IMG/VR virus record: IMGVR_UViG_3300028384_000991
Location: 1-64,000 of that record
Direction: 5' to 3' (one strand)
DNA: 64,000 nucleotides
Source: a virus
The translations under genes were made by a program, and so were the position numbers. Positions 9,104 to 14,944 of this stretch are shown piece by piece. The notes below the pieces were generated by a model. That model made no database searches. It saw only the letters and a list, made by a program, of their open reading frames with translations, and was not told the DNA's origin. Numbering within the stretch: the stretch's first letter is position 1; every line of letters begins with the position of its first letter.

Positions 9104-9744
9104 TATAGTAACGCCGCCAATCGTTTTTTATCAGGATCATTTAATAAATCAAGTTGTGCTTGAATGTTTGGTGGAATCTCAGTAGCCGGACCGCCTGCAC
9201 TACCATTACCTGTTGGAGGTGCTTTGCCATCTGGTGCTGTTGAACTACCTGTTGCTGTTGCTTTATTAACTGCTCCTGTATCAGTAGTTCCTTGTTTTGC
9301 ATTGGCGCCTGCTCCTTGAGATGCGCCAGCACCTGCGCCAGCCGCTGGTTGTGCAGTACTACCTGCTCCGCTTGACACTCTTTTGTTATCCTGAACTACC
9401 TGTAAAAGAATTTTATCTAATTGTTTTTTATTAATCTGTCCTGTTTGTGGTTGGACTTTATCTGTAGGATATTTTTTAGACTTTAGCCAAGCAATAAGTT
9501 CACCGGTTTCGATGTTTTTCATTGCTTGTCCTGTAGATCCCATGTAATTTTGAAATTCTCCACGCAATTTGTTTGCTTCATCACCCGTATCTGCTTGACC
9601 AGCCAGTCCTAACGCAGTGTCTTTGGCACCTAATTTAGCCGCCGCTTTAGCGCCAAACTTGGTTAAACCCTGTTTAATTTTGCCTACAGGTGCTTCATTT
9701 GTGGTTTGTTTTTTGGATTCCACTACAATTTGCGATACTTTCAT
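9103..9744 (-). CDS. Ala/Gly-rich protein with capsid-targeting-like N-terminus
   Basis: A 213-residue protein starting MKVSQIVVESKKQ, close in form to T4 internal-protein targeting peptides (IPIII begins MKTYQEFIAE). A short ordered region (about 55-120) contains LRGEFQNYMGSTGQAMKNIE and ELIAWLKSKKYPTDKVQPQT, reminiscent of domains in other marine phage structural proteins. It is followed by a long Ala/Gly/Thr/Pro linker and a C-terminal helix (PPNIQAQLDLLNDPDKKRLA). It is first in the minus-strand trio, with AAGGAC before the ATG and a late-promoter-like element at 9773-9780. Function is unknown; internal head protein is my inference. Confidence 0.5.
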   Translation of the reverse strand: MKVSQIVVESKKQTTNEAPVGKIKQGLTKFGAKAAAKLGAKDTALGLAGQADTGDEANKLRGEFQNYMGSTGQAMKNIETGELIAWLKSKKYPTDKVQPQTGQINKKQLDKILLQVVQDNKRVSSGAGSTAQPAAGAGAGASQGAGANAKQGTTDTGAVNKATATGSSTAPDGKAPPTGNGSAGGPATEIPPNIQAQLDLLNDPDKKRLAALL

Positions 9745-10191: not shown

Positions 10192-10218
10192 AGATGTGCT
10201 AAAGCACATCTTGTTTTC
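10192..10218 (+). terminator. Rho-independent terminator after the two small genes
   Basis: AGATGTGC (10192-10199), loop TAAA, GCACATCT (10204-10211), followed by TGTTTTC. A perfect 8-bp stem and a T-rich tail directly after the stop at 10190. On the other strand the hairpin is not followed by a T run. Confidence 0.75.
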
Positions 10219-10224
10219 GCTATC

Positions 10225-10367
10225 GCTCAAACACATTATCTTAAACAATAATTGCGAAGCAATTTAGCATCATGTAGATAGTTGAGCCACAATTCGCCCG
10301 TTGCCGGACGAATTAAAAATTTGGCTTCACATCATGTGAGTTAGCATCGCCATTCTGTTTAAGAAGA
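10225..10367 (-). ncRNA. Candidate structured small RNA with pseudoknot and GNRA hairpin
   Basis: No gene fits here, but nested pairings do. P1: TCTTAAACA (10364-10356) with TGTTTAAGA (10247-10239), 9 bp, enclosing the rest. P2: TGGC/GCCA (10352-10349 with 10325-10322) around TCAC/GTGA (10327-10339). P3: AATTCGTCCG, loop GCAA, CGGGCGAATT (10314-10291), 10 bp; read on the minus strand the loop is a GNRA tetraloop and the one mismatch becomes a G-U pair. P4: AATTGC/GCAATT (10264-10250). GCTCAA in the junction (10287-10282) can pair with TTGAGC beyond P1 (10230-10225), a pseudoknot. A sigma70-like promoter ends a few bases before P1. I recognise no known family; riboswitch, phage sRNA or part of a larger RNA are all possible. 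Confidence 0.55.
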
Positions 10368-10373
10368 TTACAT

Positions 10374-10403
10374 ATAATATGTGCGGAGGCGGCAGACCGT
10401 CAA
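10374..10403 (-). promoter_or_regulatory. Possible sigma70-type promoter of the structured RNA
   Basis: Minus strand: TTGACG (10403-10398), 18-base spacer, TATTAT (10379-10374). This predicts initiation around 10367, just before the closing helix of the RNA candidate at 10364. The same TTGAC bases could instead pair within the GC-rich region upstream, so the two readings compete. Confidence 0.45.
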
Positions 10404-10620
10404 CCCCCTACTTCAGCATTCGCAATATCCGCGGAAGGCAGTTGATCCCAAACAGTCGAAATCACTTACCTGTGTGTTGTATCTTTTTCACAGAGCACAC
10501 ATCTTTTATGCCTGTAGTTAGCATTGTCCTTGCAACGCACCAGTATCTGAATGCACATTACTTTCGTAAGCATCCTCAAGGTGAGTCGAGGTTCCCCGAC
10601 CAAACAGTGTTGCTATTTCT
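10380..10620 (-). ncRNA. GC-rich gene-free region, possible larger structured RNA
   Basis: By hand count, 115 of 240 bases in 10381-10620 are G or C (48 percent), well above the neighbouring genes. No convincing protein frame exists on either strand. Several hairpins fit the minus strand better, because the opposite strand has a C-A mismatch where minus has G-U: GTCGGG/CTCGAC (about 10600-10585) and GCGTTG/CAATGC (10538-10521). Others are TTAC-GAAA-GTAA (10569-10558, GNRA loop), an outer TCAAC/GTTGA helix, and an inner CTTC/GAAG helix around 10410-10450. It lies directly downstream of the GIY-YIG-like gene on that strand. It may form one RNA with 10225-10367, or be a decayed gene; I cannot decide. 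Confidence 0.35.
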
Positions 10621-10623
10621 TGC

Positions 10624-11049
10624 CTATTTTATTTTTTTCAACGCTTCTTTTAAAACTTTGCTACTACCTACACGCACATTAATAATGCCGTTGTAGTATT
10701 CGTCAGTTTCTAAGACACGTCTGTCGAATTGTTCTTTGGCTTCAAGATAACTTAGTACGCCTTTGCTTTCACAGTAGTGTAAAATTTCTCGTGTAAACTT
10801 TTCTGGGCCTATGTTTTGTACATCTTCAAGTAAATGTTCTGAAGATCCCCAATAGTCTCTCCAGTCTGATTCTACTTTTTCACGTCTTTTGTTTTTTCTG
10901 CCTTTGAGTGGTGGGCGAGTTTTTTTGAATTTTGCGAGTTTTTTGCCTACGTACTTACGATTGTTTGTTAAATTGGTTATAAGGTAAACAAAGCCTTCTA
11001 TGCCTTCTGGTATTTCTGTTACTTCTTGTCCTTTGTAAGTCCATTGCAT
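10624..11049 (-). CDS. GIY-YIG-like nuclease
   Basis: A 141-residue protein with an N-terminal GFVYLITNLTNNRKYVGKK (residues 19-37), a variant of the GIY-(about 10)-YIG nuclease core. A basic stretch (KFKKTRPPLKGRKNKRREKV), a DWRDYWGSS motif and later YLEAKEQFDRRVL with a conserved Glu follow; in GIY-YIG enzymes the late Glu binds the metal. Relatives in T4-like phages include endonuclease II and intron or free-standing homing nucleases. No intron is evident around it. It is the last protein gene in the minus-strand operon after gp46 and stands next to the structured RNA region. A homing role versus host-DNA degradation cannot be decided here. Confidence 0.7.
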   Translation of the reverse strand: MQWTYKGQEVTEIPEGIEGFVYLITNLTNNRKYVGKKLAKFKKTRPPLKGRKNKRREKVESDWRDYWGSSEHLLEDVQNIGPEKFTREILHYCESKGVLSYLEAKEQFDRRVLETDEYYNGIINVRVGSSKVLKEALKKIK

Positions 11050-11067: not shown

Positions 11068-11274
11068 CTACTCTGCCTTGGTGTCTTTTTTGGAATCGTA
11101 AGTGTTTTTTACTTCTTCCATACGTATTTTAGCAAGTGTACGTATTTCTCTGAGCCACTTCCGAGTTTCCTGCATGGTTCTGACACCACGATTTTTTTCA
11201 AAACGTTCATTTGCTTTGAAATATTCCAAATATGCTTTTGTTAATTTGTCGTGAGTGTCGTCTTGTATGCTCAT
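11068..11274 (-). CDS. Small charged helical protein next to gp46
   Basis: A 68-residue protein (MSIQDDTHDKLTKAYLEYFK, then RKWLREIRTLAKIRMEEVKN). It is almost entirely predicted helix with alternating charge. Its ATG overlaps the gp46 stop by 4 bases (ATGA), which indicates translational coupling. Small basic helical proteins accompany the recombination genes of marine T4-like phages, but no function is assigned. Binding to DNA or to the gp46/47 complex is a plausible guess. Confidence 0.55.
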   Translation of the reverse strand: MSIQDDTHDKLTKAYLEYFKANERFEKNRGVRTMQETRKWLREIRTLAKIRMEEVKNTYDSKKDTKAE

Positions 11275-13040
11275 TGTACTACATCAATGTCGTTTGCATA
11301 ACTGGTAAAGCCGTTTTCTTTTACAACCTTAAGTACATTATTAACACGACCTTGCAATTCGTCTTTGTGCGAGATCAAATAAATGTTCTTTTTACGTTCT
11401 CTACCCATTTTCTTAAGAATAGCCAAACTGTGTTCTACACCTGCTGTGTCCATTCCGCTGTCAATAAGTTCATCAACAAACAACAAGTTAATGTTTTGAT
11501 ATAAACTTTCCCATACATCACGGAATGCAAAACTTAATCCTAAGATTAATCTGTTACGTTCACCTCTTGACAAGTTATCAAAGTCTAAATCCTGTCCAAG
11601 TTGTGTAATCATAACTGTAAGATCGTTTTGGAATACAACAGTATGCGGCAATCCAATTTTATCAAGATAGTATGTGAGTCTATTGTTAAGATATGCAAGA
11701 TTTTGTTCAATAATTTTCTTACGAATAAACGAATCTTTGTTTGTCAACAGTTTATATAAGAACGCTTGATGTTCTTGCTCTACAGTTAGTTCGTTAACTT
11801 TGTCCCAGTTTACTTCTTGAATAGCAGTGTTCTCAAGTTCTTCAATTTGATCTACATAAGGATCGCTTTCTGTTTCTTTTGATTTTAATGCTTGTTTTAG
11901 ATTCTCAACATTGCTTCTATGATCATATGCTTCTTTTGCAGTTTCATAAAATGTAGTTGGTTTAGAATCTAAATCACCTAATTCAGAAAGTTTAGTTTGA
12001 ACCTTTTCAAACTTTGTGTTAATTTCAAATAGATATGACATGGTTTCGCCATATTCTTCTTGAAGTTTAGATTCAATTTCGTGTTTTTTATCTTCGTGTA
12101 AGTCTTGTCCACAAGCATGACACTTTGCATCATTCAAACCTTCTAAGTCTTTTGTAAGTTTATCAATCTGTCTGTCTGTTTGACTTAATGCACTTTCAAG
12201 TGTAGCACGTTCTTTTTCTAAATTGCGTTTGTGTTTGTCGTTTTCGGACCATTTAGATAGCAATTCGTGATTTGCAAGTTCTGTTTCAATGTCCAGGTGT
12301 TCTAATTCGTCAATGCCGTTTTGCAAACGTTCGCAGTCTTTGGCATTTTGTTGACGCCATGCACTTGATTTTACTTTCAAACTTTCAATAGTTTCTGCAA
12401 CTTTTTCATTTGCAGTTTGAATACCGTTTATTCTTGCAGTTTCTTCTGTAATACCGTCACGTGTTTCTTTTTGTTTTACTTTTAATTGTTCTGCTTTTTC
12501 AGAAAGTATAGTAATACCAAGTAATTGTTCAATAATAGCACGTTGATCATTTGGTTTTAAACTTAAGAATGGTTCGGTATATGTGTTTAGTGCAACCAAA
12601 TGCTTAAACATATCGTGACTCATTTGTAACAAGTCGTCAATTTCTTTTTGTGTTTCTCTTGAATCGCCTTGCGACTCGTCTGTAATTTCTTTTTCTTCTT
12701 CGTTAATAAAAAACTTTAGTACATTAGGTCCTCGACCTCTTTCAATTCTATATTTTGTACCATTCTTTTCAAAATTAAGTGTAACTAACATTCCTTTGCC
12801 GTTAGTTTTATTAATTAGGTTGTTTCTACGAATGTTAGTTAGTGCTTGTCCATACAATGCATATGAAAGGGCATTAATGATAGTGGTCTTACCAGTTCCG
12901 TTTCGGGAGCCACTATCATCGCCTCCTTGATCAAGATTCTCTCCAAGGACAAGTGTAAGTTGTCTATTGCTGAAATCAACAGCCTGCGTTTGATTACCAA
13001 CGCTCATAAAGTTTTTTACGGTTAAATCTTTGATCAACAT
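11271..13040 (-). CDS. gp46: gp46 recombination endonuclease subunit (SMC/Rad50-like)
   Basis: A 589-residue ATPase of the Rad50/SbcC family that with gp47 resects DNA ends during recombination-dependent replication and degrades host DNA. Walker A is GSRNGTGKTT at residues 44-53, separated from the usual LGENL by an extra loop. Two coiled coils flank a zinc hook, CHACGQD, near residue 306. The ABC signature is LSRGERNRLILGLSF near 490, and Walker B is LLFVDELIDSGMD near 520. Length matches T4 gp46 (560). It starts 3 bases after gp47 and its end overlaps the next gene by 4, so the three form one operon under the sigma70-type promoter at 14078-14106. Confidence 0.95.
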   Translation of the reverse strand: MLIKDLTVKNFMSVGNQTQAVDFSNRQLTLVLGENLDQGGDDSGSRNGTGKTTIINALSYALYGQALTNIRRNNLINKTNGKGMLVTLNFEKNGTKYRIERGRGPNVLKFFINEEEKEITDESQGDSRETQKEIDDLLQMSHDMFKHLVALNTYTEPFLSLKPNDQRAIIEQLLGITILSEKAEQLKVKQKETRDGITEETARINGIQTANEKVAETIESLKVKSSAWRQQNAKDCERLQNGIDELEHLDIETELANHELLSKWSENDKHKRNLEKERATLESALSQTDRQIDKLTKDLEGLNDAKCHACGQDLHEDKKHEIESKLQEEYGETMSYLFEINTKFEKVQTKLSELGDLDSKPTTFYETAKEAYDHRSNVENLKQALKSKETESDPYVDQIEELENTAIQEVNWDKVNELTVEQEHQAFLYKLLTNKDSFIRKKIIEQNLAYLNNRLTYYLDKIGLPHTVVFQNDLTVMITQLGQDLDFDNLSRGERNRLILGLSFAFRDVWESLYQNINLLFVDELIDSGMDTAGVEHSLAILKKMGRERKKNIYLISHKDELQGRVNNVLKVVKENGFTSYANDIDVVQ

Positions 13041-13043
13041 ATT

Positions 13044-14048
13044 CTATAACTCGTTATAAATGTTTAGCAGTGTTTGTTTGTTGTAGTTTTCACTTTCGAT
13101 AGCGTTAATTTCTTCTGCTACAATCTGGTCAACGCTTTCAAATTTAGTAATATCGATGTCAGTGTTAATTTGATCATCTTGTAAACTTGGAATAAGTGTA
13201 ATTTCGCGACAATTAAACTGACGTTGGAATTCTTCTTTGATAAAACTTGCTTCTTCGTAACTAATATTAATATCAAGTGTTACTCTAAGATACATTTTTT
13301 CTTTCATCAATGTATCTTTTTGATCAATTAGTTGGCTAAGTTTTACAGTTCTATACTTAGGACAACCTTCCCAATCAAGATATTGAGGTTCTCCACCATG
13401 TTCGAGAATCATCATACCACGCTTGTCGTCCCAAGCATCTGCATAGTTGTGCGGAAATGCATTACCAATATATGTTACATTACCTTGTGTTTGTCTTTTA
13501 TGGAAGTGTCCACTAAACACATAGTCCTGATGTACAAAATGTTTTGATTGTAGTTCGCCTGTTTCAGGCATTTGTACCATAGCATTCATATAAAAGTTTG
13601 GAAGTTCAAAGTGACCAAACATATATTTGCTTTTGATCTTAGGAATCTTTTTCCATTCTTCACCAACTAACCACGGAACCATAGTGCTATCGCCAATGGT
13701 TGTAATTTCGTCAACAACAGTAATACCTTCAATATGTTTTGCAAACTCTACACTTTGAATATCTCTTTTATCTTTGTAATACAGATCGTGATTGCCTGGA
13801 AAGTAAAAGAACTGTTCAAATGCTTTTCCAAGTTTTTCAAGACTACGGATTGAATAATCCATAGTAACAATATTCAAACTGTTTCTGTTATGATGCCAAT
13901 CGCCCATAAAGATGCCTGTTTCACATCCATGTTCTTTGGCTTTTTCAATATACCAATCAATAAATTCTTCACAGTCTTCGTTGTGCGCCTTTGAGTTAGA
14001 TTTTAACCCAAAGTGAATGTCTGTAAATACTGCACATTTTTTAAACAA
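13044..14048 (-). CDS. gp47: gp47 recombination endonuclease subunit (Mre11/SbcD-like)
   Basis: A 334-residue metallophosphoesterase, the nuclease partner of gp46. Phosphodiesterase motifs in order are D10-I-H12, G49-D-W-H-H-N54, G85-N-H-D88, then GHFELPN and SGHFHKRQ, covering both metal sites. The start is TTG at 14046-14048 (not ATG), chosen because FKKCAVFTDIHFG begins the fold directly and GAGG lies 7 bases upstream. Length matches T4 gp47 (339). A TTGACT/TAAAAT promoter lies in the 62-base gap before it. Confidence 0.94.
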   Translation of the reverse strand: MFKKCAVFTDIHFGLKSNSKAHNEDCEEFIDWYIEKAKEHGCETGIFMGDWHHNRNSLNIVTMDYSIRSLEKLGKAFEQFFYFPGNHDLYYKDKRDIQSVEFAKHIEGITVVDEITTIGDSTMVPWLVGEEWKKIPKIKSKYMFGHFELPNFYMNAMVQMPETGELQSKHFVHQDYVFSGHFHKRQTQGNVTYIGNAFPHNYADAWDDKRGMMILEHGGEPQYLDWEGCPKYRTVKLSQLIDQKDTLMKEKMYLRVTLDINISYEEASFIKEEFQRQFNCREITLIPSLQDDQINTDIDITKFESVDQIVAEEINAIESENYNKQTLLNIYNEL

Positions 14049-14077
14049 AATAATACCTCTATTTTTACTGTCTTAAT

Positions 14078-14106
14078 ATTTTACAACAAAAATTTAATAA
14101 AGTCAA
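14078..14106 (-). promoter_or_regulatory. Sigma70-type promoter for gp47-gp46 operon
   Basis: Minus strand TTGACT (14106-14101), 17-base spacer, TAAAAT (14083-14078). One mismatch per hexamer and ideal spacing. It lies between the gp55 stop and the gp47 start, with room for a leader carrying GAGG. Expected to work with unmodified host polymerase early in infection. Confidence 0.72.
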
Positions 14107-14110
14107 GAAC

Positions 14111-14944
14111 TTATTCGCCCTTAGCCATTTTTGCTCTTTGTTCTTCAACTTGTCTTTCCCATTCCCCTTGGCTTTGACGAGTGTAACTCGGAGTCATATC
14201 GTTCATTTCAAGTATGTCATCACGTATATTTTGATTACGTTTTTCAATATTAATGACTCTTACGAACGAATTTGTAACGGCCGCTGTGTAGTATGCAAAC
14301 GGGTTTTGTGACTTTGATTCGTCAAATTGCAAGCCAATTTGGGTAAGTTGTAGAATTGCTTGACCACGCATTTCATCATTGTAGGTATAGCCTCTTACAT
14401 TACCTCTTGTTGCATAACGATCACATAATTTCATCCACATACGAGCAAGTTTTTCAGTTGCTTTGCCTGCTCTCAAGTTAAATGCACCATTTTCCATGCC
14501 ACCTTCCCAGTGGCTTTTGCCCACACAAATCAAGTTATCGTTATCATCAAACTTGAAGTGTTGGAACGGTGGAAAATTTAATTTTACTTTTGTATCTGCT
14601 ACTGTTTTAGGATTTTTCTTACGTCCTTTTTCTTCCGGAATATGATCAAATGTCATAATACGGAAAATTAGTTCTTCTTTTGTAATTTTTCTATAGTCTA
14701 TAGCACAGTCTGCTTGTTTTACTTTTTCGCCTGCTTCTTTACGTGCGGCATAGTCCGCATCACCTAATCTTTTTGCTTTGTTTCTTTTTGCTTCTGCAAT
14801 GGTTCTAACGTTAATTTTATCAATGCTGGGTAAAATAATGTCAAATTGATGGTAGTCTTGGTCTACAAAACTGCAATAACTGCTTTTTGATTTGTGTATC
14901 TCTGCCAATAGGTCCTTGTTGTTCAGATAGTTTACTCTTTTCAC
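14111..14944 (-). CDS. gp55: gp55 late-transcription sigma factor
   Basis: A 277-residue protein matching T4 gp55 at both ends of its conserved part. VNYLNNKDLLAEI near the N-terminus corresponds to T4 YNYVNNKELLQAI. RGYTYNDEMRGQAILQLTQI then FDESKSQNPFAYYTAAVTNS then FVRVINIEKRNQN (about 190-245) corresponds to the sigma region-2-like core. T4 gp55 has 185 residues; this one carries an insertion of about 90 between the two blocks (about residues 25-150, including KVKLNFPPFQHFKFDDNDNL and an HWEGG motif). gp55 redirects host RNA polymerase to TATAAATA promoters with sliding clamp gp45. The start is GTG at 14944 with GGAG upstream, under a perfect sigma70 promoter. Confidence 0.86.
   Translation of the reverse strand: MKRVNYLNNKDLLAEIHKSKSSYCSFVDQDYHQFDIILPSIDKINVRTIAEAKRNKAKRLGDADYAARKEAGEKVKQADCAIDYRKITKEELIFRIMTFDHIPEEKGRKKNPKTVADTKVKLNFPPFQHFKFDDNDNLICVGKSHWEGGMENGAFNLRAGKATEKLARMWMKLCDRYATRGNVRGYTYNDEMRGQAILQLTQIGLQFDESKSQNPFAYYTAAVTNSFVRVINIEKRNQNIRDDILEMNDMTPSYTRQSQGEWERQVEEQRAKMAKGE

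What the first reader, a model, noticed from the sequence alone, without database searches (positions are those of the whole stretch)
10225..10367. Structured RNA candidate: closed multi-helix with GNRA hairpin and pseudoknot
A 9-bp closing helix (10239-10247 with 10356-10364) encloses three hairpins, and a junction GCTCAA can pair with TTGAGC beyond the closing helix to form a pseudoknot. One hairpin is a continuous 10-bp stem capped by GCAA only when read on the minus strand, where a C-A mismatch becomes G-U. A sigma70-like promoter predicts a start about 3 bases before the closing helix. This is far beyond what a chance gap should show in AT-rich DNA, and I cannot match it to a known RNA class.
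Basis: partly seen in the sequence, partly recalled or inferred. Interest (0 to 1): 0.85.

Follow-up and report, generated by a model that had tools for sequence, protein, structure and literature searches.

The report
Large paired-code RNA in ocean phages
Between two genes of a T4-like aquatic phage lies a real, previously undescribed ~425-base structured RNA, shared by hundreds of uncultured phages, which carries two copies of a six-base word that differ between phages but nearly always match each other within one phage, so it probably recognises something outside itself twice.

Summary
Relatives in IMG/VR show the gene runs from about 10617 to 10192 on the minus strand (~425 nt), right after a GIY-YIG (SegE-like) ORF. 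Of 93 non-redundant loci, 88 have gp46 and 84 the GIY-YIG gene upstream on the same strand.

In 25 relatives an 18-helix model gives 49 of 93 pairs with two-sided changes (235 cells; 70 in shuffles; 0/500); G-U far exceeds A-C, fixing the strand. The GNRA hairpin is real. The 9-bp closing helix holds only in this window, the promoter is spurious, and the pseudoknot is conserved in this subtype without two-sided changes.

No Rfam family matches the window's RNA; some relatives carry Rfam Polynucleobacter-1 as 5' domain.

All types keep two copies of a hexamer [CG]AU[GA]A[AU] around the hairpin. All eight versions occur; copies agree in 139 of 145 distinct segments, and four mismatch scans of 2.9 million contigs found no true RNA. 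No partner was found in the RNA, at orthologous phage gene starts, or in neighbouring proteins.

Best reading: a trans-acting phage ncRNA offering one recognition element twice to a host partner. Structure is shown; partner and effect are inferred.

The parts
10192..10617 (-). whole RNA gene (5' end near 10617, right after the GIY-YIG stop; 3' end at or near the hairpin 10211-10192)
   Evidence: conserved across relatives with indels; 18 helices, 49 of 93 pairs with two-sided changes
10532..10613 (-). 5' domain: P1 GCAAC/GUUGC closing helix enclosing P2-P4
   Evidence: P1 and P3 100% paired with two-sided changes
10549..10575 (-). hairpin P4, sequence highly variable, strongest covariation (all six pairs of helix 4 change on both sides)
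10472..10500 (-). hairpin P6: variable stem (GUGUG/CACAC, GACGG/CCGUC, GUGG/CCAC...) around conserved CUCUGnGAAAAAG sequence
10438..10470 (-). hairpin P7 (two stacked helices), covarying
   Evidence: helices 8 and 9
10385..10408 (-). hairpin P8 GGGGG..CGG..CCG-CCUCC; a similar GUAGG...CCG-CCU stretch is seen in type C/E relatives
10330..10340 (-). copy 1 of the recognition element, CUCA-CAUGAU-G (hexamer 10336-10331)
10291..10314 (-). GNRA hairpin AAUUCGUCCG-GCAA-CGGGCGAAUU between the two copies
10268..10278 (-). copy 2 of the recognition element, UCUA-CAUGAU-G (hexamer 10274-10269)
10250..10264 (-). hairpin P12 AAUUGC-UUC-GCAAUU, covarying
   Evidence: helix 15
10213..10232 (-). hairpin P13 GUUU-GA-GC-GAUA-GC-GA-AAAC, tandem G.A flanked by helices; inner pairs GC/GC, AC/GU, GU/AC across relatives
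10192..10211 (.). terminal hairpin AGATGTGC/GCACATCT, covarying; on the plus strand an intrinsic-terminator-like site behind the 64-aa gene, on the minus strand the RNA's last hairpin, without a good U-tract here
10624..11049 (-). GIY-YIG (SegE-type, PF19835) ORF, near-constant upstream neighbour
11068..14944 (-). upstream genes conserved with the RNA: gp55 sigma factor, gp47, gp46, 68-aa protein

Best explanation
The locus encodes a ~425-nt structured noncoding RNA of T4-like aquatic phages, read in the same direction as and just behind the gp55-gp47-gp46-orf68-GIY-YIG genes (shown by sequence). It is not a leader of a gene: no same-strand gene follows within about 450 nt. The fold is a multi-helix 5' domain that differs between phage lineages plus a 3' domain kept in all types, in which a hairpin (GNRA-capped here) separates two copies of one short element, [CUC/UCU]-A-[CG]AU[GA]A[AU] (shown). 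The two copies change together between phages with no matching change elsewhere in the RNA, so each is read by the same partner (inferred). No conserved complementary site was found in phage genes, and neighbouring proteins do not track the hexamer, so the partner is most likely a host RNA or RNA-binding protein. The RNA would act in trans, presenting the element twice on a rigid scaffold to bind, sequester or redirect that partner during infection (inferred, not shown). Above 0.95: a real structured RNA. About even: trans-acting with a two-site host partner.
For: Covariation: 49/93 pairs with two-sided changes, 235 cells vs 70.2 in shuffles, covariation score 0.309 vs 0.139, slid controls 0.047-0.087. 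Strand: 213 G-U vs 22 A-C cells; full-length z -3.5 minus, -1.6 plus. Not coding. Context: RNA on the same strand as the GIY-YIG gene in 156 of 156 loci holding both; gp46 in 88 and GIY-YIG in 84 of 93 non-redundant loci. One copy per genome in 15 of 15 long contigs. Hexamer: 139 of 145 distinct segments identical in both copies, all eight versions, mostly from a pattern that let the copies vary independently. Scans for C/G, G/C, G/A and T/A mismatched copies gave 1, 0, 1 and 1 hit, each inside a protein-coding gene and not an RNA. On a gp46 tree the hexamer changed at least 14 times, and in 16 of 16 independent supported pairs both copies changed the same way. In type A the first position is matched perfectly only by the other copy. 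No partner at a fixed place in the RNA.
Against: No transcript was seen; expression is inferred from conservation alone. No partner or target was identified. A direct contact between the two copies, or a phage protein encoded elsewhere, is not excluded. The third variable position is looser: four segments (e.g. L111) have CATGAA in copy 1 and CATGAT in copy 2. The tests for phage-encoded targets covered nine genomes or fragments and 80 gene clusters and required 6-7 exact complementary bases.
Confidence: 0.5

Rival explanations
1. A scaffold or assembly RNA (in the manner of GOLLD or ROOL), in which the two identical elements make symmetric contacts with each other or between RNA copies, so that they must match for structural reasons and no outside partner exists.
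For: Large, ornate, phage-borne, modular 5' half and conserved 3' half; the only determinant of each copy found is the other copy; GOLLD, ROOL and OLE form homo-oligomeric complexes (PMC12286853, abstract).
Against: Identical strands do not pair by Watson-Crick rules, the hexamers are not palindromic, and no complementary site exists at a fixed place elsewhere in the RNA, so kissing contacts between copies are not available. No Rfam match to GOLLD or ROOL.
Confidence: 0.2
2. A cis element: the structured 3' untranslated region of the gp47-gp46-GIY-YIG transcript, protecting it or ending it, with protein-binding sites that regulate these genes.
For: Near-invariable position directly behind this gene block on the same strand; no conserved promoter found between the GIY-YIG ORF and the RNA; terminal hairpin covaries.
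Against: ~425 nt with many domains is far more than a 3' stabiliser needs; a few loci have the RNA more than 600 nt from, or without, the GIY-YIG gene; the hexamer does not track GIY-YIG residues better than those of gp46.
Confidence: 0.2
3. A decoy for a host defence ribonuclease or toxin: two repeats imitate the host's RNA antitoxin, and their sequence follows the host's version.
For: Two copies identical within a phage, different between phages, no phage-encoded partner found; phage decoys of this type are known in principle (own knowledge: type III toxin-antitoxin systems).
Against: No Rfam antitoxin family matches; the 5' domain has no role in this model; hosts are unknown.
Confidence: 0.08
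4. A DNA element (replication origin, recombination site) whose repeats and palindromes look like RNA structure.
For: Direct repeats around a hairpin.
Against: Strong G-U over A-C bias on one strand (213 vs 22) and strand-specific folding excess are signs of RNA; one constant orientation relative to genes.
Confidence: 0.02

Closest known systems
Polynucleobacter-1 RNA (Rfam RF01718; Weinberg et al. 2010, PMC2864571)
   Same: The 141-position model matches the 5' domain of type C relatives at the same genomic place and on the same strand (59-87 bits, cut-off 37; L032, L038, L047, L182, L202, L269).
   Different: The window's own RNA does not match it. The family as curated covers only about the 5' third of a longer RNA and lacks the duplicated element and the 3' domain.
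GOLLD and ROOL RNAs
   Same: Large ornate noncoding RNAs, phage-associated according to the literature (own knowledge); for GOLLD a variable 5' part and a conserved 3' part.
   Different: No sequence-structure match; this RNA is shorter and has another gene context; a matched pair of hexamers is not, to my knowledge, described for them.
HEARO / OMEGA RNAs (RNA beside an HNH nuclease gene)
   Same: A structured RNA next to a nuclease gene in a constant arrangement.
   Different: No Rfam match; the nuclease here is a 141-aa GIY-YIG, a close homologue of which occurs without the RNA (Melnitz phage, 75% identical), and it does not coevolve with the hexamer.
Two-piece tmRNA with glutamine riboswitch of phage Melnitz (PMC9004378)
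   Same: Structured noncoding RNA in a marine T4-like phage.
   Different: ARAGORN finds no tRNA or tmRNA in the whole 156.6-kb record; no riboswitch match.

Membership tests
Polynucleobacter-1 (RF01718) | covariance-model score at or above 37 bits in the window | tested here: not met
   window: no match at gathering nor up to E = 5
Polynucleobacter-1 (RF01718) | model match in relatives at the homologous place | tested here: met
   six type C loci, 59-87 bits, in the RNA behind the GIY-YIG gene
GOLLD / ROOL | Rfam model match | tested here: not met
GOLLD / ROOL | homo-oligomeric RNA complex | not testable with these tools
   needs purified RNA
riboswitch / 5' leader | lies upstream of a gene it controls, same strand | tested here: not met
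   next same-strand gene starts at 9744, about 450 nt past the RNA, behind two opposite-strand ORFs
tmRNA (one- or two-piece) | tRNA-like domain and tag frame | tested here: not met
   ARAGORN and Rfam negative
group I / group II intron | catalytic core matching Rfam models | tested here: not met
retron / DGR RNA | reverse transcriptase in the genome | tested here: not met
   no PF00078 match in G000 and three related records (records may be incomplete)
type III antitoxin RNA | tandem repeats beside a ToxN-like gene | not tested
   annotated neighbours show no toxin, but no dedicated toxin search was run

The most novel reading that the evidence does not exclude
A widespread phage RNA family uses a short variable code word, written twice in the same molecule and set by the host, to recognise one host nucleic acid: a phage-borne RNA specificity code of a kind not described before, unnoticed because cultured relatives are missing and Rfam holds only a fragment of some members.
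Probability: 0.25. Interest if true: 0.88.

Novelty: new variant of a known kind. Interest (0 to 1): 0.72.

Why it matters
Many uncultured aquatic phages devote about 0.3% of their genome to this RNA, conserved at one place beside their recombination and late-sigma genes, so it probably does something important in infection. The matched hexamers turn 'an RNA of unknown function' into a testable question: what reads the code, and does it differ between hosts? It also shows that the Rfam family Polynucleobacter-1 matches only a fragment of a larger RNA in these phages, giving that orphan a genomic home in T4-like phages.

Tried and rejected
Known RNA class for the window: none at gathering or E up to 5 beyond chance matches. 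Protein-coding: rejected. Complementary partner inside the RNA or within 800 nt: none at a fixed place. Hexamer as a repeated genomic motif (operator, promoter): its own version is not specifically enriched in nine genomes; the enriched upstream words are NATAAATAC late promoters instead. Phage mRNA targets: no orthologous gene start carries the own-version complement. GIY-YIG as the reader of the code: its residues predict the hexamer worse than those of gp46. Reverse transcriptase link: none. Cultured phages: blastn with the window and three other RNA types finds no homologue in 50,697 records. Homology to a ~0.9-kb gene-poor region in Pseudomonas phage Paride was seen by eye (ACATAGCA, CUCUGnnGAAAAAG), but BLAST is no better than a reversed control: left open. 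The published PA5oct transcriptome paper is not held.

Full report
The observation. One scan of IMG/VR with 18 bases of that hairpin returned 80 stretches, and the surrounding sequence is plainly conserved in 41 distinct ones. Aligning further upstream showed that conservation continues, even more strongly, for another ~250 nt, up to the stop codon of the GIY-YIG gene.

Is it RNA? On 25 relatives (alignment A2) I wrote an 18-helix, 93-pair structure and counted pairs: 91.2% of cells are standard pairs (81.2% in shuffles), 49 pairs have two-sided changes (28.2), 235 cells (70.2), covariation score 0.309 (0.139), with 0 of 500 shuffles reaching these values; slid structures score 0.047-0.087. 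Hairpins P4, P6, P7, P12 and the terminal hairpin carry most of the signal. The structure was read from the window's sequence with RNAalifold as a guide, so the percentage paired is biased, but that does not explain the two-sided changes. Helix 13 (around copy 1) is weak, 58% paired, and may be misaligned. G-U cells outnumber A-C cells 213 to 22, which fixes the strand; all frames on both strands hold stops in every sequence and most indels are not multiples of three. Full-length folding is significant on the minus strand (z -3.5) and not convincingly on the plus strand (z -1.6).

The closing helix is complete only in the window; in relatives 2-8 of 9 pairs remain. The pseudoknot letters are nearly invariant in this subtype; in L070 a G-C becomes G-U, in L173 it breaks, and type B lacks the GCTCAA partner. 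It is possible, not shown. The sigma-70-like site lies within the RNA, with its -10 in a hairpin whose sequence is exchanged between relatives. A weak promoter-like site (TTTAAA-N17-TAAAAT, 10654-10626) would start just at the true 5' end, but it lies in the end of the GIY-YIG frame and is not clearly conserved. Whether the RNA has its own promoter or is cut from the operon transcript is open.

Family and context. A profile of 20 sequences finds the RNA in 163 of the first 179 loci, and in all 156 loci that also hold the GIY-YIG ORF it is on the same strand. More distant relatives keep the 3' domain (model positions ~238-461; E 2e-31 for L038, 2e-16 for L027) but have different 5' domains (types B, C and others). 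In 93 non-redundant loci gp46 is upstream in 88 and GIY-YIG in 84, with gp47 and gp55 beyond where the contig reaches, always same strand (PHROGs: late sigma factor, SbcD- and SbcC-like; Pfam PF19835 SegE for the GIY-YIG). Fifteen long contigs each hold one copy. The window's record is a 156.6-kb virus without tRNA, tmRNA or any Rfam RNA. Nearest cultured phages by gp46/gp55 are jumbo phages of Pseudomonas and Sinorhizobium at 43-48% identity; no cultured phage in the collection has the RNA by blastn.

The known fragment. In type C members Rfam's Polynucleobacter-1 (RF01718) covers the 5' domain behind the GIY-YIG gene, 59-87 bits against a cut-off of 37. The 2010 paper holds the name once in its main text (PMC2864571). 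The window's type A has no such match, so it is not a member of RF01718 as curated; RF01718 is a domain of some relatives in the wider family.

The paired code. Every type keeps two short elements on either side of the hairpin: CUCA-SAURAW-G and UCUA-SAURAW-R. Three positions vary (C/G, G/A, A/U). A scan that let the copies vary independently gave, with the earlier loci, 145 distinct segments; 139 have identical hexamers, all eight combinations are seen, and the six exceptions are four A/T differences at the last position plus two others, one of which, L263, is a protein-coding chance match. Scans of 2.9 million viral contigs for unequal copies (C then G; G then C; G then A; T then A) found 1, 0, 1 and 1 stretches, all inside protein genes. 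The reverse A-then-G and A-then-T scans were not run; the 145-segment sample holds none of the former and the four known cases of the latter. On a gp46 tree the three positions changed at least 5, 8 and 7 times, and in 16 of 16 independent supported pairs both copies went the same way. Only the other copy explains a copy: in type A the next best column reaches 0.82 of the information and lies in a hypervariable hairpin.

Looking for the partner. No complementary hexamer sits at a fixed place in the RNA or within 800 nt. The own version is not specifically enriched in nine genomes and occurs between genes almost only in the RNA itself. No orthologous gene start carries the own-version complement. 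GIY-YIG residues associate with the hexamer less than gp46 residues do; orf68 associates most but is contradicted by the L244/L292 pair. L105 and L108 carry a type A RNA with the GATGAT hexamer and an orf68 like that of type C phages L038 and L082, so the code seems to follow the phage's background, or its host, and not the RNA's type.

Mechanism. Shown: a structured RNA, its strand, extent, context, one copy per genome, modular 5' domain, and the matched duplicated element. Inferred: it acts in trans; one partner reads both copies; the partner is a host RNA or protein. Uncertain: whether the two copies touch each other directly (scaffold rival), and what binding does to the infected cell. I put the RNA itself above 0.95 and the two-site outside partner near 0.5.

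Novelty. Large phage RNAs of unknown function are a known kind; this is a new, very widespread family partly overlapping one orphan Rfam entry, with a property I have not found described: two variable words that must be the same. Literature searches found no description, but the library holds open-licence papers only.

Noticed in passing
L308 (Pseudomonas phage Paride) 7178-8100 and L309 (Sinorhizobium phage Phosso) 7402-8415: Downstream of the same gp46 block both cultured jumbo phages have ~0.9-1 kb without convincing genes and strongly foldable, in Paride GC-shifted and ending in a T-run; a large unannotated RNA is likely. Paride shows ACATAGCA and GUUG-CUCUGGUAGAAAAAGAU-CAAC, reminiscent of the window's RNA, but BLAST homology is not significant.
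   Followed up: partly
window 11068-11274 (-): 68-aa basic protein between gp46 and GIY-YIG in 63 of 93 loci, no confident Pfam or PHROGs match; the pattern of some members (NSAAGTRARKALAELGKLVKARRNEI) recalls histone H1-like bacterial proteins.
   Followed up: partly
G000, intergenic regions: T4-type late promoters of the form NATAAATAC are the most enriched upstream words in this genome and in two relatives.
   Followed up: no
L304 (Methylophilales phage Melnitz) 5998-6438: A 75% identical GIY-YIG (SegE-like) gene sits in a ribonucleotide reductase operon without the RNA, so the gene can live without it; PHROGs and several phage records call this family 'NAD synthetase', which looks like a wrong name.
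   Followed up: partly
L294 and L295: Contigs of 335 kb and 153 kb binned in a Neomarinimicrobiota MAG carry the RNA and the GIY-YIG gene; probably misbinned phage contigs.
   Followed up: no
window 10379-10696 (+): 105-aa plus-strand ORF (MCGGGRPSTP...) overlapping the RNA is a by-product of RNA conservation, not a gene; in many relatives its start codon and frame are lost.
   Followed up: yes
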